NCBI GenBank assembly: GCA_002189035.1 | Contig: NEEC01000500.1 | Span: 1-26,230, forward strand | Origin: Utricularia gibba | Taxonomy: Eukaryota > Streptophyta > Magnoliopsida > Lamiales > Lentibulariaceae | Length of the DNA: 26,230 nt | Reading direction: 5' to 3' | Part shown: positions 1-26,230 of the stretch, in pieces | Numbering within the stretch: position 1 is the stretch's first letter | How the letters are laid out: each line of letters starts with the position of its first letter | Translations under genes and position numbers: made by a program | Notes under the pieces: model-generated | Databases searched by the model: none | What the model was told of the DNA's origin: nothing | What the model saw: the letters and a program-made list of their open reading frames with translations, nothing else

Positions 1-416
1 AAGGAACCGCTTCTCGTTTTATGGCGGCCAGTCTCGCTGGGAACTTGGTCCTCGACCCCGATTCTGTATGGCTCATGAGGTCAACTGGATGCAAATCGAT
101 TAAAAAAAAATGATCCATTTGTTTAAATTATGATGTCACGTGCACCCCACATGATTTTTTTCAACAACTTACTTTATACTTGAGAAGGCGGTCTTTGGGT
201 GCACTTGGAACCGGAAAAAGATCAGCTTAGGCCTTGGCCCAAAGTAAGTTGTAGCCCGGCAAAGAAAGTGATGTATTTATTAACGTTCGGTTTTCGGTGT
301 TGCCTACATGGTTTTTCAAGGAACAGCTTCTCGTTTTGTGGCGGCCAGTCTCGCTAGGAACTTGGTCCGGGCCCGCGATTCTTTATGGCTCATGAGGTCA
401 AAGGATGCAAATCGAT
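1..416. repeat. Left edge: truncated B monomer plus one A monomer
   Basis: The window opens inside a B core (AAGGAACCGCTTCTCG at the very start) ending at 100, followed by a full A monomer at 101-416. The B piece has the TTTTATGG and CCTCGACC variants that elsewhere follow GGATCC-type linkers (2525-2560, 8145-8180), so the monomer just outside the window was probably an A2 copy. The A monomer ends with GTCAAAGG, one base shorter than usual. Confidence 0.9.
137..142. promoter_or_regulatory. CACGTG palindrome, one per monomer (first copy)
   Basis: Every linker I read contains CACGTG followed by CACC, including linkers with many other indels (4187-4330, 6674-6810, 21246-21370, 25296-25400). The flanks give GTCACGTG after B tails and ATCACGTG after most A tails. 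Both fit the RTCACRTG element that budding-yeast Cbf1 binds at centromeres (CDEI), and also the general E-box/G-box of bHLH and bZIP factors. A2 linkers have CTCACGTG and miss the first base. Function here is inference only. Confidence 0.35.
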
Positions 417-6052: not shown

Positions 6053-6360
6053 TAAAAAAATGTTGCATTTGTTTAAATTATGATGTCACGTGCACCCCAC
6101 ATGATTTTTTCAACAACTTACTTTATACTTGAGCAGGCGGTCTTTGGGTGCACTTGGAACGGGAAAAAGATCAGCTTAGGCCTTGGCCCAAAGTAAGTTG
6201 TAGTCCGGCAAAGAGTGATGTATTTATTAACGTTCGGTTTTCGGGGCCTACATGGTTTTTCAAGGAACCGCTTCTCGTTTTGTGGCGGCCAGTCTCGCTG
6301 GGAACTTGGTCCTTGACCCGATTCTGTATGGCTCATGAGGTCAACTGGATGCAAATCGAT
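5747..6360. repeat. Mosaic monomers: A and B diagnostic bases interleaved
   Basis: The monomer at 5747-6052 has B-like CAAATAAAG, then A-like TTAACG, B-like GGGGGTGCC, A-like AACAGC (5961), B-like CGCTGGGAAC, A-like GCGATTCTTA, then B-like GTCAACTGG. The monomer at 6053-6360 mixes A-like GATCAGCTTAGGCCTTGG and TTAACG with B-like GTAGTCCGG, AACCGC and CTTGACC. It also lacks short pieces of the core (CAAAGAGTG; GGGGCC for GGGGGCTGCC). Short alternating tracts suggest gene conversion rather than one crossover. Dimer phase is kept across this pair. Confidence 0.8.
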
Positions 6361-7915
6361 TAAAAAAAATGATGCATTTGTTTAAATTACGATGTCACGT
6401 GCACCCCACATGATTTTTTCAACAACTTACTTTATACTTGAGGAGGCGGTCTTTGGGGCACTTGGAACCGGAAAAAGGTCAGCTTAGGCCTTGGCCCAAA
6501 GTAAGTTGTAGCCGGCAAAGAAAGTGATGTATTTATTAACGTTCGGTTTTCGGTGTTGCCTACATGGTTTTTCAAGGAACAGCTTCTCGTTTTGTGGCGG
6601 CCAGTCTCGCTAGGAACTTGGTCCGGGCCCGCGATTCTTTATGGCTCATGAGGTCAAAAGGATGCAAATCGATTAAAACAATGTTGCATTTGTTTAAATT
6701 GCGATATCACGTGCACCCCACATGATTTTTTCAACAACTTACTTTATACTTGAGAGGCGGTCTTTGGGTGCACTGGAACGGGAAAAGGGTTAGGCTTGCC
6801 CAGAGTAGTTGTAGTCCGGCAAATAAAGTGATGTATTTATTATCGTTCGGTTTTCGGGGGCTGCCTACATGGTTTTTCAAGGAACCGCTTCTCGTTTTGT
6901 GGCGGCCAGTCTCGCTGGGAACTTGGTCCTTGACCCCGATTCTGTATGGCTCATGAGGTCAACTGGATGCAAATCGATTAAAAAAAAATGATGCATTTGT
7001 TTAAATTATGATGTCACGTGCACCCCACATGATTTTTTCAAAACTACTTTATACTGAGAGGCGGTCTTGGGGTGCACTTGGAACCGGAAAAAGGTCAGCT
7101 TAGGCTTGGCCCAAAGTAAGTTGTAGCCCGGCAAAGAAAGTGATGTATTTATTAACGTTCGGTTTTCGGTGTTGCCTACATGGTTTTTCAAGGAACAGCT
7201 TCTCGTTTTGTGGCGGCCAGTCTCGCTAGGAACTTGGTCCGGGCCCGCGATTCTTTATGGCTCATGAGGTCAAATGGATGCAAATCGATGAATACAATGT
7301 GCATTTGTTTAAATTGCGATATCACGTGCACCCCACATGATTTTTTCAACAACTTACTTTATACTTGAGCAGGCGGTCTTTGGGTGCACCTGGAACGGGA
7401 CAAAGGTAAGGTTTGGCTTGCACGAGAGTTAGTTGTAGTCCGGAAAATAAAGTGATGTATTTATTATCGTTCGGTTTTCGGGGGCTGCCTACATGGTTTT
7501 TCAAGGAACCGCTTCTCGTTTTGTGGCGGCCAGTCTCGCTGGGAACTTGGTCCTTGACCCGATTCTGTATGGCTCATGAGGTCAACTGGATGCAAATCGA
7601 TTAAAAAAAATGATGCATTTGTTTAAATTACGATGTCACGTGCACCCACATGATTTTTTTTAACAACATACTTTATACATGAGGAGGCGGTCTTGGGGGC
7701 ACTTGGAACCGGAAAAAGGTCAGCTTAGGCCTTGGCCCAAAGTAAGTTGTAGCCCGGCAAAGAAAGTGATGTATTTATTAACGTTCGGTTTTCGGTGTTG
7801 CCTACATGGTTTTTCAAGGAACAGCTTCTCGTTTTGTGGGCGCCAGTCTCGCTAGGAACTTGGTCCGGGCCCGCGATTCTTTATGGCTCATGAGGTCAAA
7901 TGGATGCAAATCGAT
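6053..7915. repeat. Hexameric higher-order repeat, copy 4 (1863 bp), degraded
   Basis: B-like mosaic 6053-6360, A 6361-6673, B 6674-6978, A 6979-7289, B 7290-7601, A 7602-7915. It is recognised mainly by position: the next GGATCC, at 8020, lies 3734 bp (two hexamers) after 4286, and the last A ends in GTCAAATGG with an A2 linker following. The opening linker lacks GGATCC. Linkers at 6674-6810 and 6979-7100 have many single-base deletions. Confidence 0.65.
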
Positions 7916-8541
7916 TAAAAAAAAATGATACATTTGTTTAAATTACGATCTCACGTGCACCCCACATGATTTTTTTAAGAACATACTTTATACATGAGGA
8001 GGCGGTCTTGGGGGCACTTGGATCCGGAAAAAGGTAGCTTAGGCTTGGCCCAAAGTAAGTTGTAGTCCGGCAAATAAAGTGATGTATTTATTATCGTTCG
8101 GTTTTCGGGGGCTGCCTACATGGTTTTTGAAGGAACCGCTTCTCGTTTTATGGCGGCCAGTCTCGCTGGGAACTTGGTCCTCGACCCGATTCTGTATGGC
8201 TCATGAGGTCAACTGGATGCAAATCGATTAAAAAAAATGATCCATTTGTTTAAATTATGATGTCACGTGCACCCACATGATTTTTTCAACAACTTACTTT
8301 ATACTTGAGAAGGCGGTCTTTGGGTGCACTTGGAACCGGAAAAAGATCAGCTTAGGCCTTGGCCCAAAGTAAGTTGTAGCCCGGCAAAGAAAGTGATGTA
8401 TTTATTAACGTTCGGTTTTCGGTGTTGCCTACATGGTTTTTCAAGGAACAGCTTCTCGTTTTGTGGCGCCAGTCTCGCTAGGAACTTGGTCCGGGCCCGC
8501 GATTCTTTATGGCTCATGAGGTCAAATGGATGCAAATCGAT
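7916..8541. repeat. Extra B+A dimer with A2-type linker
   Basis: B 7916-8228 and A 8229-8541. The B linker carries GGATCC at 8020, and the core has TTTTTGAAGG, TTTTATGG and CCTCGACC. The TTTTTGAAGG variant sits about 7497 bp (24 monomers, four hexamers) after the copy near 626. The following A also ends in GTCAAATGG with an A2-like linker, so two A2 dimers are adjacent here. This breaks the six-monomer rhythm. Confidence 0.8.
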
Positions 8542-11045
8542 TAAAAAAAATGATACATTTGTTTAAATTGCGATCTCACGTGCACCCCACATGATTTTTT
8601 AAGAAACATACTTTATACATGAGGAGGCGGTCTGGGGGGCACTTGGAACGGAAAAAGGTCAGCTTAGGCTTGGCCCAAAGTAAGTTGTAGTCCGGCAAAT
8701 AAAGTGATGTATTTATTATCGTTCGGTTTTCGGGGGCTGCCTACATGGTTTTTCAAGGAACCGCTTCTCGTTTTGTGGCGGCCAGTCTCGCTGGGAACTT
8801 GGTCCTTGACCCCGATTCTGTATGGCTCATGAGGTCAACTGGATGCAAATCGATTAAAAAAATGATCCATTTGTTTAAATTATGATGTCACGTGCACCCC
8901 ACATGATTTTTTTCAACAAACTTTATACTTGAGAAGGCGGTCTTTGGGTGCACTTGGAACCGGAAAAAAGATCAGCTTAGGCCTTGGCCCAAAGTAAGTT
9001 GTAGCCCGGCAAAGAAAGTGATGTATTTATTAACGTTCGGTTTTCGGTGTTGCCTACATGGTTTTTCAAGGAACAGCTTCTCGTTTTGTGGCGGCCAGTC
9101 TCGCTAGGAACTTGGTCCGGGCCCGCGATTCTTTATGGCTCATGAGGACAAAAGGATGCAAAAATCGATGAAACAATGTGCATTTGTTTAAATTGCGATA
9201 TCACGTGCACCCACATGATTTTTTCAACAACTTACTTTATACTTGAGAAGGCGGTCTTTGGGTGCACCTGGAACGGGACAAAGGTAAGGTTTGGCTTGCA
9301 TCGAGAGTTAGTTGTAGTCCGGCAAATAAAGTGATGTATTTATTATCGTTCGGTTTTCGGGGCTGCCTACATGGTTTTTCAAGGAACCGCTTCTCGTTTT
9401 GTGGCGGCCAGTCTCGCTGGGAACTTGGTCCTTGACCCGATTCTGTATGGCTCATGAGGTCAACTGGATGCAAATCGATTAAAAAAAATGATCCATTTGT
9501 TTAAATTAGATGTCACGTGCACCCCACATGATTTTTTCAACAACTTACTTTATACTTGAGAAGGCGGTCTTTGGGTGCACTTGGAACCGGAAAAAGATCA
9601 GCTTAGGCCTTGGCCCAAAGTAAGTTGTAGCCCGGCAAAGAAAGTGATGTATTTATTAACGTTCGGTTTTTCGGTGTTGCCTACATGGTTTTTCAAGGAA
9701 CAGCTTCTCGTTTTGTGGCGGCCAGTCTCGCTAGGAACTTGGTCCGGGCCCGCGATTCTTTATGGCTCATGAGGACAAAAGGATGCAAATCGATGAATAC
9801 AAATGTTGCATTTGTTTAAATTGCGATATCACGTGCACCCCACATGATTTTTTCAACAACTTACTTTATACTTGAGAGGCGGTCTTTGGGTGCACCTGGA
9901 ACGGGACAAAGGTAGGTTTGGCTTGCCCGAGAGTTAGTTGTAGTCCGGCAAATAAAGTGATGTATTTATTATCGTTCGGTTTTCGGGGGCTGCCTACATG
10001 GTTTTTCAAGGAACCGCTTCTCGTTTTGTGGCGGCCAGTCTCGCTGGGAACTTGGTCCTTGACCCGATTCTGTATGGCTCATGAGGTCAACTGGATGCAA
10101 ATCGATTAAAAAAATGATCCATTTGTTTAAATTACGATGTCACGTGCACCCCCACATGATTTTTTCAACAACTTACTTTATACTTGAGAAGGCGGTCTTT
10201 GGGTGCACTTGGAACCGGAAAAAGATCAGCTTAGGCCTTGGCCCAAAGTAAGTTGTAGCCCGGCAAAGAAAGTGATGTATTTATTAACGTTCGGTTTTCG
10301 TGTTGCCTACATGGTTTTTCAAGGAACAGCTTCTCGTTTTGTGGCGGCCAGTCTCGCTAGGAACTTGGTCCGGGCCCGCGATTCTTTATGGCTCATGAGG
10401 ACAAAAGATGCAAATCGATGAATACAATGTTGCATTTGTTTAAATTGCGATATCACGTGCACCCCACATGATTTTTTCAACAACTTACTTTATACTTGAG
10501 GAGGCGGTCTTTGGGTGCACCTGGAACGGGACAAAGGTAAGGTTTGGCTTGCCCGAGAGTTAGTTGTAGTCCGGAAAATAAAGTGATGTATTTATTATCG
10601 TTCGGTTTTCGGGGCTGCCTACATGGTTTTTCAAGGAACCGCTTCTCGTTTTGTGGCGGCCAGTCTCGCTGGGAACTTGGTCCTTGACCCCGATTCTGTA
10701 TGGCTCATGAGGTCAACTGGATGCAAATCGATTAAAAAAAATGATGCATTTGTTTAAATTACGATGTCACGTGCACCCACATGATTTTTTTAACAACATA
10801 CTTTATACATGAGGAGGCGGTCTTGGGGGCACTTGGAACCGGAAAAAGGTCAGCTTAGGCCTTGGCCCAAAGTAAGTTGTAGCCCGGCAAAGAAAGTGAT
10901 GTATTTATTAACGTTCGGTTTTCGGTGTTGCCTACATGGTTTTTTCAAGGAACAGCTTCTCGTTTTGTGGCGCCAGTCTCGCTAGGAACTTGGTCCGGGC
11001 CCGCGATTCTTTATGGCTCATGAGGTCAAATGGATGCAAATCGAT
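8542..11045. repeat. Eight-monomer stretch between A2 markers
   Basis: B 8542-8854, A 8855-9169, B 9170-9479, A 9480-9794, B 9795-10106, A 10107-10419, B 10420-10732, A 10733-11045. The first linker is A2-like (GATACATTTG, GCGATCTCACG, AAGAAACATAC) but reads GGAACGG where others have GGATCC. The A copies at 8855, 9480 and 10107 end in GACAAAAGG; the last ends in GTCAAATGG with GGCGCC for GGCGGCC. Small lesions: two extra A's before ATCGAT near 9161, one G lost in GACAAAAG near 10406, and TTCGTGTTG for TTCGGTGTTG near 10297. Confidence 0.85.
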
Positions 11046-13548
11046 TAAAAAAAATGTTGCATTTGTTTAAATTACGATCTCACGTGCACCCCACATGATT
11101 TTTTTAAGAACTACTTTATACATGAGGAGGCGGTCTTGGGGGGCACTTGGATCCGGAAAAAGGTCAGCTTAGGCCTTGGCCCAAAGTAAGTTGTAGTCCG
11201 GCAAATAAAGTGATGTATTTATTATCGTTCGGTTTTCGGGGGCTGCCTACATGGTTTTTCAAGGAACCGCTTCTCGTTTTGTGGCGGCCAGTCGCTGGGA
11301 ACTTGGTCCTCGACCCCGATTCTGTATGGCTCATGAGGTCAACTGGATGCAAATCGATTAAAAAAATGATCCATTTGTTTAAATTATGATGTCACGTGCA
11401 CCCCACATGATTTTTTCAAAACTTACTTTATACTTGAGAAGGCGGTCTTGGGGGGCACTTGGAACCGGAAAAAGATCAGCTTAGGCCTTGGCCCAAAGTA
11501 AGTTGTAGCCCGGCAAAGAAAGTGATGTATTTATTAACGTTCGGTTTTCGGTGTTGCCTACATGGTTTTTCAAGGAACAGCTTCTCGTTTTTGTGCGGCC
11601 AGTCTCGCTAGGAACTTGGTCCGGGCCCGCGATTCTTTATGGCTCATGAGGACAAAAGGATGCAAATCGATGAATACAATGTTGCATTTGTTTAAATTGC
11701 GATATCACGTGCACCCCACATGATTTTTTCAACAACTTACTTTATACTTGAGGAGGCGGTCTTTGGGTGCACTGGAACGGACAAAGGTAAGGTTTGGCTT
11801 GGCCGAGAGTTAGTTGTAGCCGGCAAATAAAGTGATGTATTTATTATCGTTCGGTTTTTCGGGGGCTGCCTACATGGTTTTTCAAGGAACCGCTTCTCGT
11901 TTTGTGGCGGCCAGTCTCGCTGGGAACTTGGTCCTTGACCCCGATTCTGTATGGCTCATGAGGTCAACTGGATGCAAATCGATTAAAAAAAAATGATCCA
12001 TTTGTTTAAATTATGATGTCACGTGCACCCCACATGATTTTTTTCAACAACTTACTTTATACTTGAGAAGGCGGTCTTGGGTGCACTTGGAACCGGAAAA
12101 AGATCAGCTTAGGCCTTGGCCCAAAGTAAGTTGTAGCCCGGCAAAGAAAGTGATGTATTTATTAACGTTCGGTTTTCGGTGTTGCCTACATGGTTTTTCA
12201 AGGAACAGCTTCTCGTTTTGTGGCGGCCAGTCTCGCTAGGAACTTGGTCCGGGCCCGCGATTCTTTATGGCTCATGAGGACAAAAGGATGCAAATCGATG
12301 AATAAATGTTGCATTTGTTTAAATTGCGATATCACGTGCACCCCACATGATTTTTTTCAACAACTTACTTTATACTTGAGCAGGCGGTCTTTGGGTGCAC
12401 CTGGAACGGGACAAAGGTAAGGTTTGGCTTGCACCGAGAGTTAGTTGTAGTCCGGCAAATAAAGTGATGTATTTATTATCGTTCGGTTTTCGGGGGCTGC
12501 CTACATGGTTTTTCAAGGAACCGCTTCTCGTTTTGTGGCGGCCAGTCTCGCTGGGAACTTGGTCCTTGACCCCGATTCTGTATGGCTCATGAGGTCAACT
12601 GGATGCAAATCGATTAAAAAAAATGATCATTTGTTTAAATTATGATGTCACGTGCACCCCACATGATTTTTTAACAACATACTTTATACATGAGGAGGCG
12701 GTCTTGGGGGGCACTTGGAACCGGAAAAAGATCAGCTTAGGCCTTGGCCAAAGTAAGTTGTAGCCCGGCAAAGAAAGTGATGTATTTATTAACGTTCGGT
12801 TTTCGGTGTTGCCTACATGGTTTTTTCAAGGAACAGCTTCTCGTTTTGTGGCGCCAGTCTCGCTAGGAACTTGGTCCGGGCCCGCGATTCTTTATGGCTC
12901 ATGAGGTCAAATGGATGCAAATCGATGAATACAATGTTGCATTTGTTTAAATTGCGATATCACGTGCACCCCACATGATTTTTTAACAACTTACTTTATA
13001 CTTGAGCAGGCGGTCTTTGGGTGCACTTGGAACGGGAAAAGGTAAGGTTAGGCTTGCCCAAGTAGTTGTAGTCCGGAAAATAAAGTGATGTATTTATTAT
13101 CGTTCGGTTTTCGGGGGCTGCCTACATGGTTTTTCAAGGAACCGCTTCTCGTTTGTGGCGGCCAGTCTCGCTGGGAACTTGGTCCTTGACCCCGATTCTG
13201 TATGGCTCATGAGGTCAACTGGATGCAAATCGATTAAAAAAATGATGCATTTGTTTAAATTACGATGTCACGTGCACCCCACATGATTTTTTTAACAACA
13301 TTACTTTATACTTGAGAGGCGGTCTTTGGGTGCACTTGGAACGGAAAAAGGTCAGCTTAGGCCTTGGCCCAAAGTAAGTTGTAGCCCGGCAAAGAAAGTG
13401 ATGTATTTATTAACGTTCGGTTTTCGGTGTTGCCTACATGGTTTTTCAAGGAACAGCTTCTCGTTTTGTGGCGGCCCAGTCTCGCTAGGAACTTGGTCCG
13501 GGCCCGCGATTCTTTATGGCTCATGAGGTCAAATGGATGCAAATCGAT
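11046..13548. repeat. Eight-monomer stretch with the last GGATCC marker
   Basis: B 11046-11358, A 11359-11671, B 11672-11983, A 11984-12299, B 12300-12614, A 12615-12926, B 12927-13234, A 13235-13548. GGATCC at 11149 is the last I find in the window. It lies 3129 bp (ten monomers) after the previous one, so hexamer register is already lost. The first B has CAGTCGCTGGG, a 2-bp loss. The A copies ending at 12926 and 13548 are the last with GTCAAATGG. Confidence 0.85.
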
Positions 13549-13820
13549 TAAAAAAATGTTGCATTTGTTTAAATTGCGATATCACGTGCACCCCACATGA
13601 TTTTTTTAAAAACTACTTTATACATGAGGAGGCGGTCTTGGGGGCACTTGGAACCGGAAAAAAGGTCAGCTTAGGCTTGGCCAAAGTAAGTTGTAGTCCG
13701 GCAAATAAAGTGATGTATTTATTATCGTTCGGTTTTCGGGGGCTGCCTACATGGTTTTGGGAACTTGGTCCTTGACCCCGATTCTGTATGGCTCATGAGG
13801 TCAACTGGATGCAAATCGAT
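13549..13820. repeat. B monomer with a 40-bp internal deletion (272 bp)
   Basis: Between 13758 and 13759 the sequence jumps from CATGGTTTT straight to GGGAACTTGG. It omits the 40 bp that normally run from TCAAGGAACC to CAGTCTCGCT. Flanking monomers are intact and the A/B order is undisturbed, so this is an internal deletion rather than loss of a repeat unit. At most 1 bp of identity lies at the junction. The missing piece is part of the otherwise most conserved core. Confidence 0.92.
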
Positions 13821-16800
13821 TAAAAAAAATGATGCATTTGTTTAAATTATGATGTCACGTGCACCCACATGATTTTTTCAACAACTTACTTTATACTTGA
13901 GAAGGCGGTCTTGGGGCACTTGGAACCGGAAAAAGATCAGCTTAGGCCTTGGCCCAAAGTAAGTTGTAGCCCGGCAAAGAAAGTGATGTATTTATTAACG
14001 TTCGGTTTTCGGTGTTGCCTACATGGTTTTTCAAGGAACAGCTTCTCGTTTTGTGGCGGCCAGTCTCGCTAGGAACTTGGTCCGGGCCCGCGATTCTTTA
14101 TGGCTCATGAGGACAAAAGGATGCAAATCGATGAATACAATGTTGCATTTGTTTAAATTGCGATATCACGTGCACCCCACATGATTTTTTCAACAACTTA
14201 CTTTATACTTGAGCAGGCGGTCTTTGGGTGCACCTGGAACGGGACAAAGGTAAGGTTTGGCTTGCACCGAGAGTTAGTTGTAGTCCGGCAAATAAAGTGA
14301 TGTATTTATTATCGTTCGGTTTTCGGGGGCTGCCTACATGGTTTTTCAAGGAACCGCTTCTCGTTTTGTGGCGGCCAGTCTCGCTGGGAACTTGGTCCTT
14401 GACCCCGATTCTGTATGGCTCATGAGGTCAACTGGATGCAAATCGATTAAAAAAAATGATGCATTTGTTTAAATTACGATGTCACGTGCACCCCACATGA
14501 TTTTTTTAAACAACTTACTTTATACATGAGGAGGCGGTCTTGGGGGCACTTGGAACCGGAAAAAGTCAGCTTAGGCCTTGGCCCAAAGTAAGTTGTAGCC
14601 CGGCAAAGAAAGTGATGTATTTATTAACGTTCGGTTTTCGGTGTTGCCTACATGGTTTTTCAAGGAACAGCTTCTCGTTTTGTGGCGGCCAGTCTCGCTA
14701 GGAACTTGGTCCGGGCCCGCGATTCTTTATGGCTCATGAGGACAAAAGGATGCAAATCGATGAATACAATGTTGCATTTGTTTAAATTGCGATATCACGT
14801 GCACCCCACATGATTTTTTCAACAACTTACTTTATACTTGAGCAGGCGGTCTTTGGGTGCACTGGAACGGGAAAAGGTAGGTTTGGCTTGCCGAAAGTTA
14901 GTTGTAGTCCGGCAAATAAAGTGATGTATTTATTATCGTTCGGTTTTCGGGGGCTGCCTACATGGTTTTTCAAGGAACCGCTTCTCGTTTTGTGGCGGCC
15001 AGTCTCGCTGGGAACTTGGTCCTTGACCCCGATTCTGTATGGCTCATGAGGTCAACTGGATGCAAATCGATTAAAAAAAATGATGCATTTGTTTAAATTA
15101 CGATGTCACGTGCACCCCACATGATTTTTTAACAACTACTTTATACTGAGAGGCGGTCTTGGGGGCACTTGGAACCGGAAAAAGGTCAGCTTAGGCCTTG
15201 GCCCAAAGTAAGTTGTAGCCCGGCAAAGAAAGTGATGTATTTATTAACGTTCGGTTTTCGGTGTTGCCTACATGGTTTTTCAAGGAACAGCTTCTCGTTT
15301 TGTGGCGGCCAGTCTCGCTAGGAACTTGGTCCGGGCCCGCGATTCTTTATGGCTCATGAGGACAAAAGGATGCAAATCGATGAATACAATGTTGCATTTG
15401 TTTAAATTGCGATATCACGTGCACCCCACATGATTTTTTCAACAACTTACTTTATACTTGAGGAGGCGGTCTTTGGGGCACTTGGAACGGAAAAAAGGTA
15501 GCTTAGGCTTGGCCCAAGTAAGTTGTAGTCCGGCAAATAAAGTGATGTATTTATTATCGTTCGGTTTTCGGGGGCTGCCTACATGGTTTTTCAAGGAACC
15601 GCTTCTCGTTTTGTGGCGGCCAGTCTCGCTGGGAACTTGGTCCTTGACCCCGATTCTGTATGGCTCATGAGGTCAACTGGATGCAAATCGATTAAAAAAA
15701 TGATCCATTTGTTTAAATTATGATGTCACGTGCACCCACATGATTTTTTCAACAACTTACTTTATACTTGAGAAGGCGGTCTTTGGGTGCACTTGGAACC
15801 GGAAAAAGATCAGCTTAGGCCTTGGCCAAAGTAAGTTGTAGCCCGGCAAAGAAAGTGATGTATTTATTAACGTTCGGTTTTCGGTGTTGCCTACATGGTT
15901 TTTCAAGGAACAGCTTCTCGTTTTGTGGCGGCCAGTCTCGCTAGGAACTTGGTCCGGGCCCGATTCTTTATGGCTCATGAGGACAAAAGGATGCAAATCG
16001 ATGAATACAATGTTGCATTTGTTTAAATTGCGATATCACGTGCACCCCACATGATTTTTTCAACAACTTACTTTATACTGAGAGGCGGTCTTGGGGGCAC
16101 TTGGAACGGAAAAAAGGCTTAGGCTTGCCAAAGTAAGTTGTAGTCCGGCAAATAAAGTGATGTATTTATTATCGTTCGGTTTTCGGGGGCTGCCTACATG
16201 GTTTTTCAAGGAACCGCTTCTCGTTTTGTGGCGGCCAGTCTCGCTGGGAACTTGGTCCTTGACCCCGATTCTGTATGGCTCATGAGGTCAACTGGATGCA
16301 AATCGATTAAAAAATGATGCATTTGTTTAAATTATGATGTCACGTGCACCCCACATGATTTTTTCAACAACTTACTTTATACTTGAGAAGGCGGTCTTGG
16401 GGCACTTGGAACCGGAAAAAGATCAGCTTAGGCCTTGGCCCAAAGTAAGTTGTAGCCCGGCAAAGAAAGTGATGTATTTATTAACGTTCGGTTTTCGGTG
16501 TTGCCTACATGGTTTTTCAAGGAACAGCTTCTCGTTTTGTGGCGGCCAGTCTCGCTAGGAACTTGGTCCGGGCCCGCGATTCTTTATGGCTCATGAGGAC
16601 AAAAGGATGCAAATCGATGAATACAATGTTGCATTTGTTTAAATTGCGATATCACGTGCACCCACATGATTTTTTCAACAACTTACTTTATACTTGAGCA
16701 GGCGGTCTTTGGGTGCACCTGGAACGGGACAAAGGTAAGGTTTGGCTTGCACGAGAGTTAGTTGTAGTCCGGCAAATAAAGTGATGTATTTATTATCGTT

Positions 16801-16931
16801 CGGTTTTCGGGGGCTGCCTACATGGTTTTTCAAGGAACCGCTTCTCGTTTTGTGGCGGCCAGTCTCGCTGGGAACTTGGTCCTTGACCCCGATTCTGTAT
16901 GGCTCATGAGGTCAACTGGATGCAAATCGAT

Positions 16932-17559
16932 TAAAAAAATGATGCATTTGTTTAAATTACGATGTCACGTGCACCCCACATGATTTTTTTAACAACTTAC
17001 TTTATACTGAGGAGGCGGTCTTGGGGGGCACTTGGAACCGGAAAAAGATCAGCTTAGGCCTTGGCCCAAAGTAAGTTGTAGCCCGGCAAAGAAAGTGATG
17101 TATTTATTAACGTTCGGTTTTCGGTGTTGCCTACATGGTTTTTCAAGGAACAGCTTCTCGTTTTGTGGCGGCCAGTCTCGCTAGGAACTTGGTCCGGGCC
17201 CGCGATTCTTTATGGCTCATGAGGACAAAAGGATGCAAATCGATGAATACAATGTTGCATTTGTTTAAATTGCGATATCACGTGCACCCCACATGATTTT
17301 TTCAACAACTTACTTTATACTTGAGCAGGCGGTCTTTGGGTGCACCTGGAACGGGACAAAGGTAAGGTTTGGCTTGCACCGAGAGTTAGTTGTAGTCCGG
17401 CAAATAAAGTGATGTATTTATTATCGTTCGGTTTTCGGGGGCTGCCTACATGGTTTTTCAAGGAACCGCTTCTCGTTTTGTGGCGGCCAGTCTCGCTGGG
17501 AACTTGGTCCTTGACCCCGATTCTGTATGGCTCATGAGGTCAACTGGATGCAAATCGAT
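16932..17559. repeat. Representative A+B dimer, the basic higher-order unit (628 bp)
   Basis: One A monomer (16932-17244) followed by one B monomer (17245-17559). This pair is the unit that repeats most regularly. A-to-A spacing is about 620-630 bp through most of the window, while adjacent A and B differ consistently at diagnostic positions. That is the definition of a dimeric higher-order repeat: the two classes diverged before the pair was amplified together. Dimer register holds from the left edge to 18800 and again from 19112 to the right edge. Confidence 0.93.
17245..17559. repeat. Representative class B monomer (315 bp)
   Basis: Class B core markers are GTAGTCCGGCAAATAAAG, TTATCGTTCGG, TCGGGGGCTGCC, GGAACCGCTTCTCG, CGCTGGGAAC, CCTTGACCCCGATTCTG and GTCAACTGG before GCAAATCGAT. 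Against class A I count about 16 differences over a ~168-bp core, roughly 90% identity by eye. The 5' linker of this copy is the type I call L1 (CACCTGGAACGGGACAAAGG, then GGCTTGCACCGAGAG). Other B copies carry L2 (CACTTGGAACGGAAAAAGG, then TTAGGCTTGGCCCAAAG) or the GGATCC-bearing A2 linker. Confidence 0.95.
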
Positions 17560-18800
17560 TAAAAAAATGATGCATTTGTTTAAATTACGATGTCACGTGC
17601 ACCCCACATGATTTTTTTAACAACTACTTTATACTGAGGAGGCGGTCTTGGGGGGCACTTGGAACCGGAAAAAGATCAGCTTAGGCCTTGGCCCAAAGTA
17701 AGTTGTAGCCCGGCAAAGAAAGTGATGTATTTATTAACGTTCGGTTTTCGGTGTTGCCTACATGGTTTTTCAAGGAACAGCTTCTCGTTTTGTGGCGGCC
17801 AGTCTCGCTAGGAACTTGGTCCGGGCCCGCGATTCTTTATGGCTCATGAGGACAAAAGGATGCAAATCGATGAATACAATGTTGCATTTGTTTAAATTGC
17901 GATATCACGTGCACCCCACATGATTTTTTCAACAACTTACTTTATACTTGAGCAGGCGGTCTTGGGGCACTTGGAACGGAAAAAAGGTAGGTTTGGCTTG
18001 CCCAAAGTTAGTTGTAGTCCGGCAAATAAAGTGATGTATTTATTATCGTTCGGTTTTCGGGGGCTGCCTACATGGTTTTTCAAGGAACCGCTTCTCGTTT
18101 TGTGGCGGCCAGTCTCGCTGGGAACTTGGTCCTTGACCCGATTCTGTATGGCTCATGAGGTCAACTGGATGCAAATCGATTAAAAAAAATGATGCATTTG
18201 TTTAAATTACGATGTCACGTGCACCCCACATGATTTTTTAACAACATACTTTATACATGAGGAGGCGGTCTTGGGGCACTTGGAACCGGAAAAAGATCAG
18301 CTTAGGCCTTGGCCCAAAGTAAGTTGTAGCCCGGCAAAGAAAGTGATGTATTTATTAACGTTCGGTTTTCGGTGTTGCCTACATGGTTTTTCAAGGAACA
18401 GCTTCTCGTTTTGTGGCGGCCAGTCTCGCTAGGAACTTGGTCCGGGCCCCGCGATTCTTTATGGCTCATGAGGACAAAAGGATGCAAATCGATGAATACA
18501 ATGTTGCATTTGTTTAAATTGCGATATCACACGTGCACCCCACATGATTTTTTCAACAACTTACTTTATACTGAGAGGCGGTCTTTGGGGCACTTGGAAC
18601 GGAAAAAAGGTTTAGGCTTGCCCAAAGTAAGTTGTAGTCCGGCAAATAAAGTGATGTATTTATTATCGTTCGGTTTTCGGGGGCTGCCTACATGGTTTTT
18701 CAAGGAACCGCTTCTCGTTTTGTGGCGGCCAGTCTCGCTGGGAACTTGGTCCTTGACCCGATTCTGTATGGCTCATGAGGTCAACTGGATGCAAATCGAT

Positions 18801-19111
18801 TAAAAAAATGATCCATTTGTTTAATTATGATGTCACGTGCACCCCACATGATTTTTTCAACAACTTACTTTATACTTGAGAAGGCGGTCTTTGGGTGCAC
18901 TTGGAACCGGAAAAAGATCAGCTTAGGCCTTGGCCCAAAGTAAGTTGTAGCCCGGCAAAGAAAGTGATGTATTTATTAACGTTCGGTTTTCGGTGTTGCC
19001 TACATGGTTTTTCAAGGAACAGCTTCTCGTTTTGTGGCGGCCAGTCTCGCTGGGAACTTGGTCCGACCCCGATTCTGTATGGCTCATGAGGTCAACTGGA
19101 TGCAAATCGAT
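18801..19111. repeat. A/B hybrid monomer at a phase slip
   Basis: The left part is pure class A (AGGCCT linker, GTAGCCCGG, TTAACG, GGTGTTGCC, AACAGC at about 19017). The right part is class B (TGGGAAC from 19051, GATTCTGTATGG, GTCAACTGG). The switch lies within about 19023-19050, a stretch identical in A and B. The hybrid is followed by an A monomer, so order reads B, A/B, A, B. Fusing an A to a B in this way removes one monomer length, as expected of unequal exchange out of dimer register. At the join GGTCCGACCCC lacks two T's of the B form. Confidence 0.9.
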
Positions 19112-19412
19112 TAAAAAAAATGATGCATTTGTTTAAATTACGATGTCACGTGCACCCCACATGATTTTTTAACAACTACTTTATACTTGAGGAGGCGGTC
19201 TTGGGGCACTTGGAACCGGAAAAAGATCAGCTTAGGCCTTGGCCCAAAGTAAGTTGTAGCCCGGCAAAGAAAGTGATGTATTTATTAACGTTCGGTTTTC
19301 GGTGTGCCTACATGGTTTTTCAAGGAACAGCTTCTCGTTTTGTGGCGGCCAGTCTCGCTAGGAACTATTCTTTATGGCTCATGAGGGCAAATCGATCATT
19401 TGTTTAAATTGC
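19112..19412. repeat. A monomer with three clustered deletions
   Basis: The A monomer at 19112-19396 lacks 15 bp (TGGTCCGGGCCCGCG, between GGAACT and ATTCTTTATGG near 19367). It also lacks 10 bp between ATGAGG and GCAAATCGAT near 19386. The next monomer lacks 13 bp (GAATACAATGTTG) directly after ATCGAT at 19396. All three fall within about 35 bp of the present sequence and are not seen in any other copy. They adjoin the hybrid monomer, so they may stem from the same event. The following B, 19397-19694, is otherwise normal. Confidence 0.88.
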
Positions 19413-20314
19413 GATATCACGTGCACCCACATGATTTTTTCAACAACTTACTTTATACTTGAGCAGGCGGTCTTTGGGTGCACCTGGAACGGGAAAAGGT
19501 AAGGTTTGGCTTGCCCGAGAGTTAGTTGTAGTCCGGCAAATAAAGTGATGTATTTATTATCGTTCGGTTTTCGGGGCTGCCTACATGGTTTTTCAAGGAA
19601 CCGCTTCTCGTTTTGTGGCGGCCAGTCTCGCTGGGAACTTGGTCCTTGACCCCGATTCTGTATGGCTCATGAGGTCAACTGGATGCAAATCGATTAAAAA
19701 AAATGATGCATTTGTTTAAATTACGATGTCACGTGCACCCCACATGATTTTTTAACAACTACTTTATACTGAGGAGGCGGTCTTGGGGGGCACTTGGAAC
19801 CGGAAAAAGGTCAGCTTAGGCCTTGGCCCAAAGTAAGTTGTAGCCCGGCAAAGAAAGTGATGTATTTATTAACGTTCGGTTTTCGGTGTTGCCTACATGG
19901 TTTTTCAAGGAACAGCTTCTCGTTTTGTGGCGGCCAGTCTCGCTAGGAACTTGGTCCGGGCCCGCGATTCTTTATGGCTCATGAGGACAAAAGGATGCAA
20001 ATCGATGAATACAATGTTGCATTTGTTTAAATTGCGATATCACGTGCACCCCACATGATTTTTTCAACAACTTACTTTATACTTGAGCAGGCGGTCTTGG
20101 GGGCACTTGGGGGAAAAAAGGTAGCTTAGGCTTGCCCAAAGTAGTTGTAGTCCGGCAAATAAAGTGATGTATTTATTATCGTTCGGTTTTCGGGGGCTGC
20201 CTACATGGTTTTTCAAGGAACCGCTTCTCGTTTTGTGGCGGCCAGTCTCGCTGGGAACTTGGTCCTTGACCCCGATTCTGTATGGCTCATGAGGTCAACT
20301 GGATGCAAATCGAT

Positions 20315-20628
20315 TAAAAAAATGATCCATTTGTTTAAATTATGATGTCACGTGCACCCCACATGATTTTTTCAACAACTTACTTTATACTTGAGAAGGC
20401 GGTCTTTGGGTGCACTTGGAACCGGAAAAAGATCAGCTTAGGCCTTGGCCCAAAGTAAGTTGTAGCCCGGCAAAGAAAGTGATGTATTTATTAACGTTCG
20501 GTTTTCGGTGTTGCCTACATGGTTTTTCAAGGAACAGCTTCTCGTTTTGTGGCGGCCAGTCTCGCTAGGAACTTGGTCCGGGCCCGCGATTCTTTATGGC
20601 TCATGAGGACAAAAGGATGCAAATCGAT
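20315..20628. repeat. Representative class A monomer (314 bp)
   Basis: Class A is recognised by its core: GTAGCCCGGCAAAGAAAG, TTAACGTTCGG, TCGGTGTTGCC, GGAACAGCTTCTCG, CGCTAGGAAC, the GGGCCCGCG block, ATTCTTTATGG, and usually GACAAAAGG before GCAAATCGAT. Its 5' linker (inherited from the B tail) carries GATCAGCTTAGGCCTTGG with an AGGCCT site. GGGCCC occurs in A cores but not in B cores, so it marks the dimer period. Variant A copies have GTCAAATGG instead of GACAAAAGG (many copies up to 13519, none after). Confidence 0.95.
20323..20479. repeat. Half-monomer subunit, copy 1 (157 bp)
   Basis: First half of the class A monomer above. Landmarks are TGATCCATTT at 20323 (TGATGCATTT in other copies), ACATGATTTTTTCAA at 20361, GGCGG at 20398, ACTTGG at 20414, GAT at 20431 and GGC at 20441. 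Each has a counterpart in the next 157 bp in the same order and at nearly the same spacing. I infer that the ~313-bp monomer arose by duplication of a ~157-bp ancestor and that the halves then diverged strongly. Hand alignment outside the landmarks is poor, so confidence is moderate. Confidence 0.6.
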
Positions 20629-20636
20629 GAATACAA
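20480..20636. repeat. Half-monomer subunit, copy 2 (157 bp)
   Basis: Second half. Counterparts are TGATGTATTT at 20480, ACATGGTTTTTCAA at 20517, GGCGG at 20551, ACTTGG at 20571, GAT at 20588 and GGC at 20598. Offsets from copy 1 are 157, 156, 153, 157, 157 and 157 bp. The end was set one half-period on and runs 8 bp past the ATCGAT cut used for monomers. This half includes most of the conserved core. Confidence 0.6.
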
Positions 20637-21245
20637 TGTTGCATTTGTTTAAATTGCGATATCACGTGCACCCCACATGATTTTTTCAACAACTTACTTT
20701 ATACTTGAGCAGGCGGTCTTGGGGGCACTTGGAACGGGAAAAAGGTAGGTTTGGCTTGCGTTAGTTGTAGTCCGGCAAATAAAGTGATGTATTTATTATC
20801 GTTCGGTTTTCGGGGGCTGCCTACATGGTTTTTCAAGGAACCGCTTCTCGTTTTTGTGCGGCCAGTCTCGCTGGGAACTTGGTCCTTGACCCCGATTCTG
20901 TATGGCTCATGAGGTCAACTGGATGCAAATCGATTAAAAAAAATGATCATTTGTTTAAATTACGATGTCACGTGCACCCCACATGATTTTTTTAACAACT
21001 ACTTTATACTGAGAGGCGGTCTTGGGGGGCACTTGGAACCGGAAAAAGATCAGCTTAGGCCTTGGCCCAAAGTAAGTTGTAGCCCGGCAAAGAAAGTGAT
21101 GTATTTATTAACGTTCGGTTTTCGGTGTTGCCTACATGGTTTTTCAAGGAACAGCTTCTCGTTTTGTGGCGGCCAGTCTCGCTAGGAACTTGGTCCGGGC
21201 CCGCGATTCTTTATGGCTCATGAGGACAAAAGGATGCAAATCGAT

Positions 21246-23110
21246 GAATACAATGTTGCATTTGTTTAAATTGCGATATCACGTGCACCCCATGATTTTT
21301 TCAACAACTTACTTTATACTTGAGAGGCGGTCTTTGGGGCACTGGAACGGAAAAAGGTAGCTTAGGCTTGCCCAAAAGTAAGTTGTAGTCCGGCAAATAA
21401 AGTGATGTATTTATTATCGTTCGGTTTTCGGGGCTGCCTACATGGTTTTTCAAGGAACCGCTTCTCGTTTTGTGGCGGCCAGTCTCGCTGGGAACTTGGT
21501 CCTTGACCCCGATTCTGTATGGCTCATGAGGTCAACTGGATGCAAATCGATTAAAAAAATGATCCATTTGTTTAAATTATGATGTCACGTGCACCCCACA
21601 TGATTTTTTCAACAACTTACTTTATACTTGAGAAGGCGGTCTTTGGGTGCACTTGGAACCGGAAAAAGATCAGCTTAGGCCTTGGCCCAAAGTAAGTTGT
21701 AGCCCGGCAAAGAAAGTGATGTATTTATTAACGTTCGGTTTTCGGTGTTGCCTACATGGTTTTTCAAGGAACAGCTTCTCGTTTTGTGGCGGCCAGTCTC
21801 GCTAGGAACTTGGTCCGGGCCCGATTCTTTATGGCTCATGAGGACAAAAGGATGCAAATCGATGAAAAAAATGTGCATTTGTTAAATTGCGATATCACGT
21901 GCACCCCACATGATTTTTTCAACAACTTACTTTATACTTGAGGAGGCGGTCTTGGGGGGCACTTGGAACGGAAAAAGGTAGCTTAGGCTTGGCCAAAAGT
22001 AAGTTGTAGTCCGGCAAATAAAGTGATGTATTTATTATCGTTCGGTTTTCGGGGGCTGCCTACATGGTTTTTCAAGGAACCGCTTCTCGTTTTGTGGCGG
22101 CCAGTCTCGCTGGGAACTTGGTCCTTGACCCCGATTCTGTATGGCTCATGAGGTCAACTGGATGCAAATCGATTAAAAAAAATGATCCATTTGTTTAAAT
22201 TATGATGTCACGTGCACCCACATGATTTTTTCAACAACTTACTTTATACTTGAGAAGGCGGTCTTTGGGGCACTTGGAACCGGAAAAAGATCAGCTTAGG
22301 CCTTGGCCCAAAGTAAGTTGTAGCCCGGCAAAGAAAGTGATGTATTTATTAACGTTCGGTTTTCGGTGTTGCCTACATGGTTTTTCAAGGAACAGCTTCT
22401 CGTTTTGTGGCGGCCAGTCTCGCTAGGAACTTGGTCCGGGCCCGCGATTCTTTATGGCTCATGAGGACAAAAGGATGCAAATCGATGAATACAATGTTGC
22501 ATTTGTTTAAATTGCGATATCACGTGCACCCCACATGATTTTTTCAACAACTTACTTTATACTTGAGCAGGCGGTCTTGGGTGCACCTGGAACGGGACAA
22601 AGGTAAGGTTTGGCTTGCAGAGAGTTAGTTGTAGTCCGGCAAATAAAGTGATGTATTTATTATCGTTCGGTTTTCGGGGGCTGCCTACATGGTTTTTCAA
22701 GGAACCGCTTCTCGTTTTGTGCGGCCAGTCTCGCTGGGAACTTGGTCCTTGACCCCGATTCTGTATGGCTCATGAGGTCAACTGGATGCAAATCGATTAA
22801 AAAAAATGATGCATTTGTTTAAATTACGATGTCACGTGCACCCCACATGATTTTTTTAACAACATACTTTATACTGAGAGGCGGTCTTGGGGGGCACTTG
22901 GAACCGGAAAAAGATCAGCTTAGGCCTTGGCCCAAAGTAAGTTGTAGCCCGGCAAAGAAAGTGATGTATTTATTAACGTTCGGTTTTCGGTGTTGCCTAC
23001 ATGGTTTTTCAAGGAACAGCTTCTCGTTTTGTGGCGGCCAGTCTCGCTAGGAACTTGGTCCGGGCCCGCGATTCTTTATGGCTCATGAGGACAAAAGGAT
23101 GCAAATCGAT
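21246..23110. repeat. Three-dimer block, right side copy 1 (1865 bp)
   Basis: B 21246-21551, A 21552-21863, B 21864-22173, A 22174-22486, B 22487-22797, A 22798-23110. The three B-to-A linkers are of the GATCCATTTG, GATCCATTTG, GATGCATTTG kinds in order, and the next block repeats this order. A-to-B linkers are L2, L2, L1. Small lesions: CACCCCATGATT (AC lost) near 21290, and GATGAAAAAAATGTGC replacing GATGAATACAATGTTGC near 21861. Confidence 0.65.
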
Positions 23111-24985
23111 GAATACAATGTTGCATTTGTTTAAATTGCGATATCACGTGCACCCCACATGATTTTTTCAACAACTTACTTTATACTTGAGGAGGCGGTC
23201 TGGGGGCACTTGGAACGGAAAAAGGTAGCTTAGGCTTGGCCCAAAGTAAGTTGTAGTCCGGCAAATAAAGTGATGTATTTATTATCGTTCGGTTTTCGGG
23301 GGCTGCCTACATGGTTTTTCAAGGAACCGCTTCTCGTTTTGTGGCGGCCAGTCTCGCTGGGAACTTGGTCCTTGACCCGATTCTGTATGGCTCATGAGGT
23401 CAACTGGATGCAAATCGATTAAAAAAAATGATCCATTTGTTTAAATTATGATGTCACGTGCACCCCACATGATTTTTTCAACAACTTACTTTATACTTGA
23501 GAAGGCGGTCTTTGGGTGCACTTGGAACCGGAAAAAGATCAGCTTAGGCCTTGGCCCAAAGTAAGTTGTAGCCCGGCAAAGAAAGTGATGTATTTATTAA
23601 CGTTCGGTTTTCGTGTTGCCTACATGGTTTTTCAAGGAACAGCTTCTCGTTTTGTGGCGGCCAGTCTCGCTAGGAACTTGGTCCGGGCCCGCGATTCTTT
23701 ATGGCTCATGAGGACAAAAGGATGCAAATCGATGAATACAATGTTGCATTTGTTTAAATTGCGATATCACGTGCACCCCACATGATTTTTTCAACAACTT
23801 ACTTTATACTTGAGGGCGGTCTTTGGGTGCACCTGGAACGGGACAAAGGTAAGGTTTGGCTTGCACCGAGAGTTAGTTGTAGTCCGGCAAATAAAGTGAT
23901 GTATTTATTATCGTTCGGTTTTCGGGGGCTGCCTACATGGTTTTTCAAGGAACCGCTTCTCGTTTGTGGCGGCCAGTCTCGCTGGGAACTTGGTCCTTGA
24001 CCCCGATTCTGTATGGCTCATGAGGTCAACTGGATGCAAATCGATTAAAAAAAATGATCCATTTGTTTAAATTACGATGTCACGTGCACCCCACATGATT
24101 TTTTCAACAACTTACTTTATACTTGAGAAGGCGGTCTTGGGTGCACTTGGAACCGGAAAAAGATCAGCTTAGGCCTTGGCCCAAAGTAAGTTGTAGCCCG
24201 GCAAAGAAAGTGATGTATTTATTAACGTTCGGTTTTCGTGTTGCCTACATGGTTTTTCAAGGAACAGCTTCTCGTTTTGTGGCGGCCAGTCTCGCTAGGA
24301 ACTTGGTCCGGGCCCGCGATTCTTTATGGCTCATGAGGACAAAAGGATGCAAATCGATGAATACAATGTTGCATTTGTTTAAATTGCGATATCACGTGCA
24401 CCCCACATGATTTTTTCAACAACTTACTTTATACTTGAGCAGGCGGTCTTTGGGTGCACCTGGAACGGGACAAAGGTAAGGTTTGGCTTGCACCGAGAGT
24501 TAGTTGTAGTCCGGCAAATAAAGTGATGTATTTATTATCGTTCGGTTTTCGGGGGCTGCCTACATGGTTTTTCAAGGAACCGCTTCTCGTTTTGTGGCGC
24601 CAGTCTCGCTGGGAACTTGGTCCTTGACCCCGATTCTGTATGGCTCATGAGGTCAACTGGATGCAAATCGATTAAAAAAAATGATGCATTTGTTTAAATT
24701 ACGATGTCACGTGCACCCCACATGATTTTTTTAACAACATACTTTATACATGAGGAGGCGGTCTTGGGGGCACTTGGAACCGGAAAAAGATCAGCTTAGG
24801 CCTTGGCCCAAAGTAAGTTGTAGCCCGGCAAAGAAAGTGATGTATTTATTAACGTTCGGTTTTCGGTGTTGCCTACATGGTTTTTCAAGGAACAGCTTCT
24901 CGTTTTGTGGCGGCAGTCTCGCTAGGAACTTGGTCCGGGCCCCCGATTCTTTATGGCTCATGAGGACAAAAGGATGCAAATCGAT
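23111..24985. repeat. Three-dimer block, right side copy 2 (1875 bp)
   Basis: B 23111-23419, A 23420-23733, B 23734-24045, A 24046-24358, B 24359-24672, A 24673-24985. B-to-A linkers again run GATCCATTTG, GATCCATTTG, GATGCATTTG; A-to-B linkers run L2, L1, L1. The A copies at 23420 and 24046 share a 1-bp loss (TTCGTGTTG). The same loss recurs in the A at 25912, six monomers after the second of these. Confidence 0.65.
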
Positions 24986-26230
24986 GAATACAATGTTGCA
25001 TTTGTTTAAATTGCGATATCACGTGCACCCCACATGATTTTTTCAACAACTTACTTTATACTTGAGGAGGCGGTCTTGGGCACTTGGAACGGAAAAAAGT
25101 CAGCTTAGGCTTGGCCCAAAGTAAGTTGTAGTCCGGCAAATAAAGTGATGTATTTATTATCGTTCGGTTTTCGGGGGCTGCCTACATGGTTTTTCAAGGA
25201 ACCGCTTCTCGTTTTGTGGCGGCCAGTCTCGCTGGGAACTTGGTCCTTGACCCCGATTCTGTATGGCTCATGAGGTCAACTGGATGCAAATCGATTAAAA
25301 AAAATGATCCATTTGTTTAATGATGTCACGTGCACCCCACATGATTTTTTCAACAACTTACTTTATACTTGAGAAGGCGGTCTTTGGGTGCACTTGGAAC
25401 CGGAAAAGATCAGCTTAGGCCTTGGCCCAAAGTAAGTTGTAGCCCGGGTGATGTATTTATTAACGTTCGGTTTTCGGTGTTGCCTACATGGTTTTTCAAG
25501 GAACAGCTTCTCGTTTTGTGGCGGCCAGTCTCGCTAGGAACTTGGTCCGGGCCCGCGATTCTTTATGGCTCATGAGGACAAAAGGATGCAAATCGATGAA
25601 TACAATGTTGCATTTGTTTAAATTGCGATATCACGTGCACCCCACATGATTTTTTCAACAACTTACTTTATACTTGAGCAGGCGGTCTTTGGGTGCACCT
25701 GGAACGGGACAAAGGTAAGTTTGGCTTGCACCGAGAGTTAGTTGTAGTCCGGCAAATAAAGTGATGTATTTATTATCGTTCGGTTTTCGGGGGCTGCCTA
25801 CATGGTTTTTCAAGGAACCGCTTCTCGTTTTGTGGCGGCCAGTCTCGCTGGGAACTTGGTCCTTGACCCCGATTCTGTATGGCTCATGAGGTCAACTGGA
25901 TGCAAATCGATTAAAAAAAATGATCCATTTGTTTAAATTATGATGTCACGTGCACCCCACATGATTTTTTCAACAACTTACTTTATACTTGAGAAGGCGG
26001 TCTTTGGGCACTTGGAACCGGAAAAAGATCAGCTTAGGCCTTGGCCCAAAGTAAGTTGTAGCCCGGCAAAGAAAGTGATGTATTTATTAACGTTCGGTTT
26101 TCGTGTTGCCTACATGGTTTTTCAAGGAACAGCTTCTCGTTTGTGGCGGCCAGTCTCGCTAGGAACTTGGTCCGGGCCCGCGATTCTTTATGGCTCATGA
26201 GGACAAAAGGATGCAAATCGATGAATACAA
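24986..26230. repeat. Right edge: two dimers of a third block, running off the window
   Basis: B 24986-25295, A 25296-25597, B 25598-25911, A 25912-26222, then 8 bp of the next B. A-to-B linkers are L2 then L1 and B-to-A linkers GATCCATTTG twice, continuing the order of the two blocks before. The A at 25296-25597 lacks 4 bp (TGTTTAATGATG) near 25320 and 8 bp (CCCGGGTGATG, missing CAAAGAAA) near 25449. The array does not end here. Confidence 0.75.

What the first reader, a model, noticed from the sequence alone, without database searches (positions are those of the whole stretch)
20323..20636. The ~313-bp monomer is itself a diverged duplication of a ~157-bp subunit
Six landmarks recur in order within one monomer at offsets of 157, 156, 153, 157, 157 and 157 bp: TGATCCATTT/TGATGTATTT, ACATGATTTTTTCAA/ACATGGTTTTTCAA, GGCGG, ACTTGG, GAT, GGC. 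The same offsets (157-158) hold in the B monomer at 17245-17559. Chance shared words would not keep one spacing. The satellite then has a layered history, 157 to 313 to 627 to ~1880 bp, with a base unit of nucleosomal size.
Basis: partly seen in the sequence, partly recalled or inferred. Interest (0 to 1): 0.72.

Follow-up and report, generated by a model that had tools for sequence, protein, structure and literature searches.

The report
Doubled 157-bp unit in bladderwort satellite
The 313-base repeat that fills this stretch of a small plant genome (very probably the bladderwort Utricularia gibba) is an old, worn tandem doubling of a repeat about 157 bases long; this is a known way for satellite DNA to grow, but it sits in a genome whose chromosome centres were reported to lack satellite repeats.

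Summary
The window is one array of 84 complete head-to-tail ~313-bp monomers. The two halves of a monomer align on a single diagonal at 155-157 bp; 0 of 500 dinucleotide shuffles reached the observed score for each of five sequences, and no other offset is favoured. A related satellite, S2, sampled over the last 200 kb of a 3.7-Mb contig with a telomere at its other end, shows the same doubling more strongly. In a tree all right halves separate from all left halves (100% bootstrap), so the doubling is older than the split of the two families. The 627-bp A/B layer is robust; the claimed ~1880-bp layer is weak. Nucleosomal size fits but is untested.

Both families together have at least 9,414 copies (~2.9 Mb). 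Contig-ordered listings show none on the four contigs I take for the complete chromosomes. PMC8333044 reports satellite repeats absent from putative U. gibba centromeres. Mechanism: ordinary satellite growth by unequal exchange, as in the 343-bp New World monkey satellite. A centromeric role is plausible (~0.55), not shown. New member of a known kind.

The parts
1..26230 (+). Satellite array S1: 84 complete ~313-bp monomers head to tail plus one partial at the left end, all on the + strand
   Evidence: Tandem Repeats Finder, one row, period 313, 84.3 copies; profile cut into monomers
20323..20635 (+). Class A monomer named in the finding
   Evidence: profile match 1-313; identical 314-bp copies on other contigs
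20323..20479 (+). Left (L) half of the A monomer, 157 bp
   Evidence: global half-to-half alignment and offset scan
20480..20635 (+). Right (R) half of the A monomer, 156 bp
   Evidence: as for the L half
17253..17566 (+). Class B monomer (the finding's B monomer in the same phase)
   Evidence: profile match; offset scan best at 157, 0 of 500 shuffles reach it
17253..17409 (+). Left half of the B monomer
   Evidence: phase set by TGTTGCATTT at 17253
17410..17566 (+). Right half of the B monomer
   Evidence: phase set by TGATGTATTT at 17410
20361..20375 (+). ACATGATTTTTTCAA, the clearest word shared with the other half (L copy)
   Evidence: position; low-variation block in 244 monomers, columns 31-50
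20517..20530 (+). ACATGGTTTTTCAA, the R copy of the shared word
   Evidence: position; low-variation block, columns 191-210
20323..20941 (+). Example of the ~627-bp A/B dimer (A 20323-20636, B 20637-20941)
   Evidence: class alternation, identity 0.965 at lag 2 against 0.892 at lag 1

Best explanation
The array is a plant satellite whose present 313-bp monomer is a fixed dimer of an ancestral ~157-bp unit. Two variants of the old unit were amplified as a pair, the two halves drifted apart (now ~65% of aligned positions) until they no longer exchanged, and 313 bp became the unit that is homogenised. Shown here: homology of the halves, the order of events, and the rarity of half-step spacing in sampled arrays. 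Inferred: unequal exchange or slippage as the mechanism. The doubled unit then split into at least two families, S1 (the window) and S2. Within S1 the same process acted again: a 627-bp A/B dimer here, and another multi-monomer order on contig C8. Its most likely role is (peri)centromeric array DNA on chromosomes that were not assembled end to end (inferred, about 0.55; the confidence given below is for the origin, not for this role).
For: Offset scan with 0 of 500 shuffles reaching the score in five sequences. 73 of 82 single monomers beat all 200 of their shuffles. S2, not used in any earlier step, gives offset 157, score 49 against a shuffle maximum of 14, 0 of 500. Cross-family L/R pairs: 0, 0, 0 and 1 of 1000 shuffles reach the score. 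L halves score 57-66 with L, R halves 59-63 with R between the families, and L with R 8-25. R and L halves separate with 100% of 200 bootstraps in a tree of ten half consensuses. The L-to-L junction word is absent from the genome while the L-to-R word of the same length occurs 2,141 times. 0 of 199 R-motif intervals are half a monomer in the window and four sampled 10-kb pieces.
Against: Strict local alignment of the halves is at shuffle level, and 9 of 82 monomers do not beat all their shuffles. No array of undoubled 157-bp units was found, and no relative's genome could be searched. Three half-step and two 1.5-step spacings occur in disordered pieces of C7 and C10. For the role: no chromatin data, no CENP-B box, and genes lie about 300 kb from the end of the S2-bearing contig.
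Confidence: 0.9

Rival explanations
1. The half-to-half resemblance is chance or base composition, made visible by picking shared words.
For: Local alignment is at shuffle level; two of the six landmarks are 3-letter words present 8 times each.
Against: 0 of 500 dinucleotide shuffles reach the score over all offsets in five sequences; the separate S2 family repeats the result at offset 157.
Confidence: 0.02
2. The halves resemble each other by shared function, not descent: two binding sites for one protein or two nucleosome-positioning elements in an otherwise unrelated 313-bp monomer.
For: The shared word ACATGnTTTTTcAA lies in low-variation blocks of both halves; variability of paired positions is weakly correlated (rho 0.18, p 0.03; 8 of 138 shifts reach it).
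Against: Similarity runs along the whole unit (20-column windows mostly 0.5-0.7, lowest 0.35). Positions shared by both halves are not significantly more conserved (27 of 138 shifts and 1025 of 5000 permutations reach the difference). The variability profile has no peak at 157.
Confidence: 0.06
3. On function: the satellite is subtelomeric or knob-like heterochromatin and has no centromere role.
For: S2 lies at the end of a 3.70-Mb contig, about the size of the 3.85-Mb contig C4 that has telomeres at both ends, so C213 could be a nearly whole chromosome with the array near its far tip; genes lie about 300 kb from that end.
Against: 0 of 20 samples taken 5-150 kb from five telomeres are satellite, and none of 13 telomeric contig ends shows it in 700 bp. 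Both are small samples.
Confidence: 0.35
4. The arrays come from another organism in the sequenced sample.
For: Most sampled copies lie on small contigs, and the ones sampled along C477, C11 and others are satellite nearly throughout.
Against: The related S2 array is joined to a telomere-bearing contig with plant-type transporter and patellin genes. S1-like monomers lie in a composite repeat at the end of C402, a 2.63-Mb contig with histone matches.
Confidence: 0.03

Closest known systems
343-bp alpha satellite of New World monkeys (Melters et al. 2013, PMC4053949, passages and section 11 read)
   Same: [quoted passage not shown] the authors read it as a dimer of a 171-bp ancestor and expect the pattern to be general.
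   Different: There the undoubled 171-bp unit is known in related species; here no undoubled 157-bp array was found. Unrelated sequence, plant host, and here a sister family carries the same doubling.
A/B dimer higher-order repeats such as Sorghum (PMC4053949, section 11) and dimeric human alpha satellite (PMC8122249, passages)
   Same: Alternating A and B monomers, more alike at two steps than at one.
   Different: Here the A and B monomers are themselves diverged dimers, so there is one more layer below.
Vaccinium satellites VaccSat1, 2, 5 and 6 (PMC7290377, passages)
   Same: Plant satellite monomers built of two subunits of differing similarity.
   Different: Monomers are shorter and the subunits partly unequal in length; here the halves are nearly equal, 155-159 bp.
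~156-bp plant centromere satellites, maize CentC 156 bp and rice CentO 155 bp (PMC8122249, passages and Table 1)
   Same: Base unit of nearly the same length.
   Different: Those are undoubled and tied to centromeres by experiment according to the review; no such tie exists here. Sequence similarity was not tested.

Membership tests
Satellite DNA | Long head-to-tail arrays of similar non-coding monomers | tested here: met
   84 monomers in the window, mean pairwise identity 0.929; no Rfam match. Coding potential was not examined separately.
Satellite DNA | High copy number in the genome | tested here: met
   5,856 exact copies of an S1 22-mer; 9,414 of a word shared with S2; 3,450 of an S2 word
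Higher-order repeat satellite | Multimers more alike than neighbouring monomers | tested here: met
   lag 2 identity 0.965, lag 1 0.892
Doubled-monomer satellite (New World monkey type) | The two halves of the monomer are homologous | tested here: met
Doubled-monomer satellite (New World monkey type) | An undoubled relative exists in related species | not testable with these tools
   No other genome of the family could be searched; the own genome gives no relatives
Centromeric satellite | Bound by CENH3 nucleosomes | not testable with these tools
   needs ChIP
Centromeric satellite | Located at the primary constriction | tested here: inconclusive
   satellite at 3 of 32 ends of the large contigs; S2 over the sampled last 200 kb of C213; orientation on the chromosome unknown
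CENP-B box satellite | Contains NTTCGNNNNANNCGGGN (motif recalled) | tested here: not met
   0 matches in the window

The most novel reading that the evidence does not exclude
U. gibba has two kinds of centromere: chromosomes with no satellite, which therefore assembled end to end and led to the published view that its centromeres lack satellites, and chromosomes with long arrays of these doubled satellites, left as unplaced contigs. The published absence would then be an effect of which chromosomes could be assembled.
Probability: 0.3. Interest if true: 0.65.

Novelty: new member of a known kind. Interest (0 to 1): 0.4.

Why it matters
It gives a clear record (157 to 313 to 627 bp) of how satellite units grow by fixing dimers, with a sister family that places the first step before a family split. 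It also shows that the genome, very probably that of Utricularia gibba, whose putative centromeres were reported to lack satellite repeats (PMC8333044), carries at least ~2.9 Mb of satellite in its own assembly. [quoted passage not shown]

Tried and rejected
Chance word sharing was rejected. A first offset scan was flawed, because the aligner slipped back to the trivial diagonal; it was replaced by banded alignment and is not used. Local alignment of halves was not above shuffles. Constraint reading: columns shared by both halves were not significantly more conserved, and the correlation of variability is weak; the variability profile has no peak at 157. ~10-bp WW power was not above shuffles. 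Single-strand folding of one monomer was not better than shuffles (81 of 100 fold at least as well). CENP-B box: none. RNA families: none at gathering score. Inner repeats within four half consensuses: none above shuffles. ~1880-bp layer: weak. Rows dropped before counts: 2 of 84 short monomers; only full-length matches from the six loci were clustered (for example 31 of 33 rows of L003 and 27 of 34 of L004), so the monomer order read from C8 has gaps. Literature: nine searches; no paper describing this satellite was seen in their listings, which show only 4 to 20 papers each. The primary assembly paper (Lan et al. 2017) is not held, so its statement is known only through PMC8333044.

Full report
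What is there. The whole 26,230-bp window is one satellite array. Tandem Repeats Finder gives a single row, period 313, 84.3 copies. A profile built from the window cuts it into 84 complete monomers and one partial, all on the + strand. Clustering by pairwise identity gives two classes, 43 A and 41 B, that alternate except at three places where two of one class adjoin. Mean identity is 0.965 at lag 2 and 0.892 at lag 1. This is a 627-bp A/B dimer.

The observation. GAT and GGC each occur eight times in the A monomer and mean nothing. A fair test must let the offset float. I scored the monomer against itself as a circle, within a band of 8 around each offset from 30 bp to half a monomer, and compared the best score with the best score of dinucleotide shuffles. 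For the pooled, A and B consensuses and for one A and one B monomer the best offset is 155-157, and 0 of 500 shuffles reach the score in each case (z 6.7, 6.4, 4.3, 5.2, 5.7). The best offset away from the half lies below the shuffle mean in all five. Periods of 1/3 to 1/6 of the monomer score negative, and no inner repeat above shuffles appears in the four halves tested. Of 84 monomers 82 were tested one by one (two short ones dropped): 73 beat all 200 of their shuffles, mean z 4.1. Against this, a strict local alignment of the two halves is at shuffle level: the likeness is weak, 65-66% of aligned positions and 54-57% counting gaps, and spread out.

Independent support. Contig ends in this genome led to a second family. 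On C213 (3.70 Mb) the last 10 kb is an array of ~310-bp monomers that match the window profile at roughly 120-155 bits, where most of the window's own monomers score 340-382. I call it S2. Its consensus was made from 30 monomers (298-314 bp) and was not used in any earlier step. Its best self-offset is 157, score 49, against a shuffle maximum of 14 (0 of 500). Left and right halves of different families also resemble each other: S2_L with A_R, S2_L with B_R and S2_R with A_L, 0 of 1000 shuffles each; S2_R with B_L, 1 of 1000. Between families L halves are nearer to L (scores 57-66) and R to R (59-63) than L to R anywhere (8-25). A tree of ten half consensuses separates all R from all L halves in 100% of 200 bootstraps; the other nodes have 27-72% support. 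So the 157-to-313 doubling came first, then the split into S1 and S2. That the A/B classes came later still is read from their 89% identity, not from the tree.

Half-step exchange has nearly stopped. The exact word expected if an L half followed an L half is not found in the genome (0), whereas the L-to-R word of the same length is found 2,141 times. The L-to-L word covers one common variant only. Spacing of the R motif is never half a monomer in the window and four sampled 10-kb pieces (0 of 199 intervals; one interval is 188). Three half-step spacings occur in a disordered piece of C7 and two 1.5-step spacings in C10; these may be assembly noise.

Higher layers. The 627-bp layer is clear. 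Sampled pieces of C479 and C33 show the same A/B order. C8 shows another order, mostly A-D-B-D in the labels, which would be about 1,252 bp; it is irregular and truncated monomers were left out of that clustering. The ~1880-bp layer in the window is weak: same-class identity three steps apart exceeds one and two steps for class B (95% intervals exclude zero) but not four steps, and none of these for class A. S2 has raised identity at lags 2, 5 and 7.

Which genome. The assembly has 100,091,633 bp in 516 contigs, an open rbcL of 484 aa on a 172-kb contig, sixteen contigs over 1 Mb met in the histone search and a contig of 6.82 Mb. PMC8333044 (passages, and section 12 read) describes a U. gibba assembly with 18 contigs over 1 Mb, four of them putatively whole chromosomes, and a Unitig_8 of 6.8 Mb; PMC6982007 (passages) gives 101 Mb. 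The identity as Utricularia gibba is inferred and very likely, not read from a label. That contigs C1-C4 are the four whole chromosomes is also my inference, from their order; 700-bp samples show telomere repeats at both ends of C3 and C4 but at one end only of C1 and C2.

Amount and place. Exact words give 5,856 copies for S1, 3,450 for S2 and 9,414 for a word shared by both. At ~313 bp each, 9,414 copies are ~2.9 Mb or ~2.9% of the assembly, a lower bound. Only the first places are listed, in what looks like contig order; they start at C7 or C34, so these words appear not to occur on C1-C4; more diverged copies there are not excluded. A sample pattern with 63 copies, all listed, fell on 35 contigs, none of the sixteen large ones. 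Of the 32 ends of the sixteen large contigs, 13 show telomere repeats, 3 satellite, 1 reads N and 15 neither, in 700 bp each. On C213, 8 of 8 samples between 15 and 200 kb from the end are S2 and 5 of 5 samples or pieces from 234 to 500 kb are not; the other end has telomere repeats. A 10-kb piece about 300 kb from the end holds genes. Satellite was found in 0 of 20 samples taken 5-150 kb from five telomeres.

How it most likely works. The anatomy is that of ordinary satellite growth: a pair of variants is amplified together, the pair becomes the unit, and its halves drift until they no longer pair. Melters et al. 2013 (PMC4053949, section 11 read) describe this for the 343-bp New World monkey repeat and expect it to be general. 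A role in (peri)centromeric chromatin is my best guess for arrays of this size and base unit, about 0.55. It is not shown. No CENP-B box in the window, no 10-bp AT periodicity and no unusual folding were found, and positions shared by the halves are not significantly more conserved.

Why it is more than routine. PMC8333044 states, citing Lan et al. 2017 (not held), that the putative centromeric regions of U. gibba lack satellite repeats. The counts here show megabases of satellite in the assembly, seemingly outside C1-C4. Either those chromosomes differ from the rest, or the satellite is not centromeric. This can be tested directly.

Noticed in passing
L068 (last 10 kb of contig C213) and L071-L078: A second satellite family, S2 (~310-bp monomers, consensus halves 157 bp apart), in every one of 8 samples between 15 and 200 kb from the end of a 3.70-Mb contig with telomere repeats at its other end; monomer identity is raised at lags 2, 5 and 7.
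   Followed up: partly
L069 (last 10 kb of contig C402): A composite tandem repeat of about 2,326 bp that holds pieces of 313-type monomers together with 62-63-bp sub-repeats; traces of the unit continue 15-20 kb from the end (L081, L082).
   Followed up: partly
L067, about 86-7417 (contig C477, about 886-8217): A Ty3/Gypsy-type retrotransposon inserted in the satellite: gag, reverse transcriptase, RNase H and integrase domains, direct repeats of a ~600-bp end with one end split by ~607 bp, integrase frame ending inside that end repeat. No Pfam chromodomain was matched; whether it is a centromeric (CRM) element was not settled.
   Followed up: partly
L003 and L004 (contig C8): A different higher-order arrangement of S1, mostly A-D-B-D instead of A-B, with only 4 of 58 monomers carrying the S1 22-mer exactly.
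   Followed up: partly
S1 word TTTTGTGGCGGCCAGTCTCGCT, genome-wide: 5,856 exact copies, but only one copy with any other base at its 14th position: very strong homogeneity, or constraint, at that base.
   Followed up: no
L005 (C7:16001-26000) and L008 (C10:1-6000): Disordered satellite with truncated monomers and odd spacings, unlike the regular arrays in the window, C8, C479 and C33; could be assembly error or real decay.
   Followed up: no
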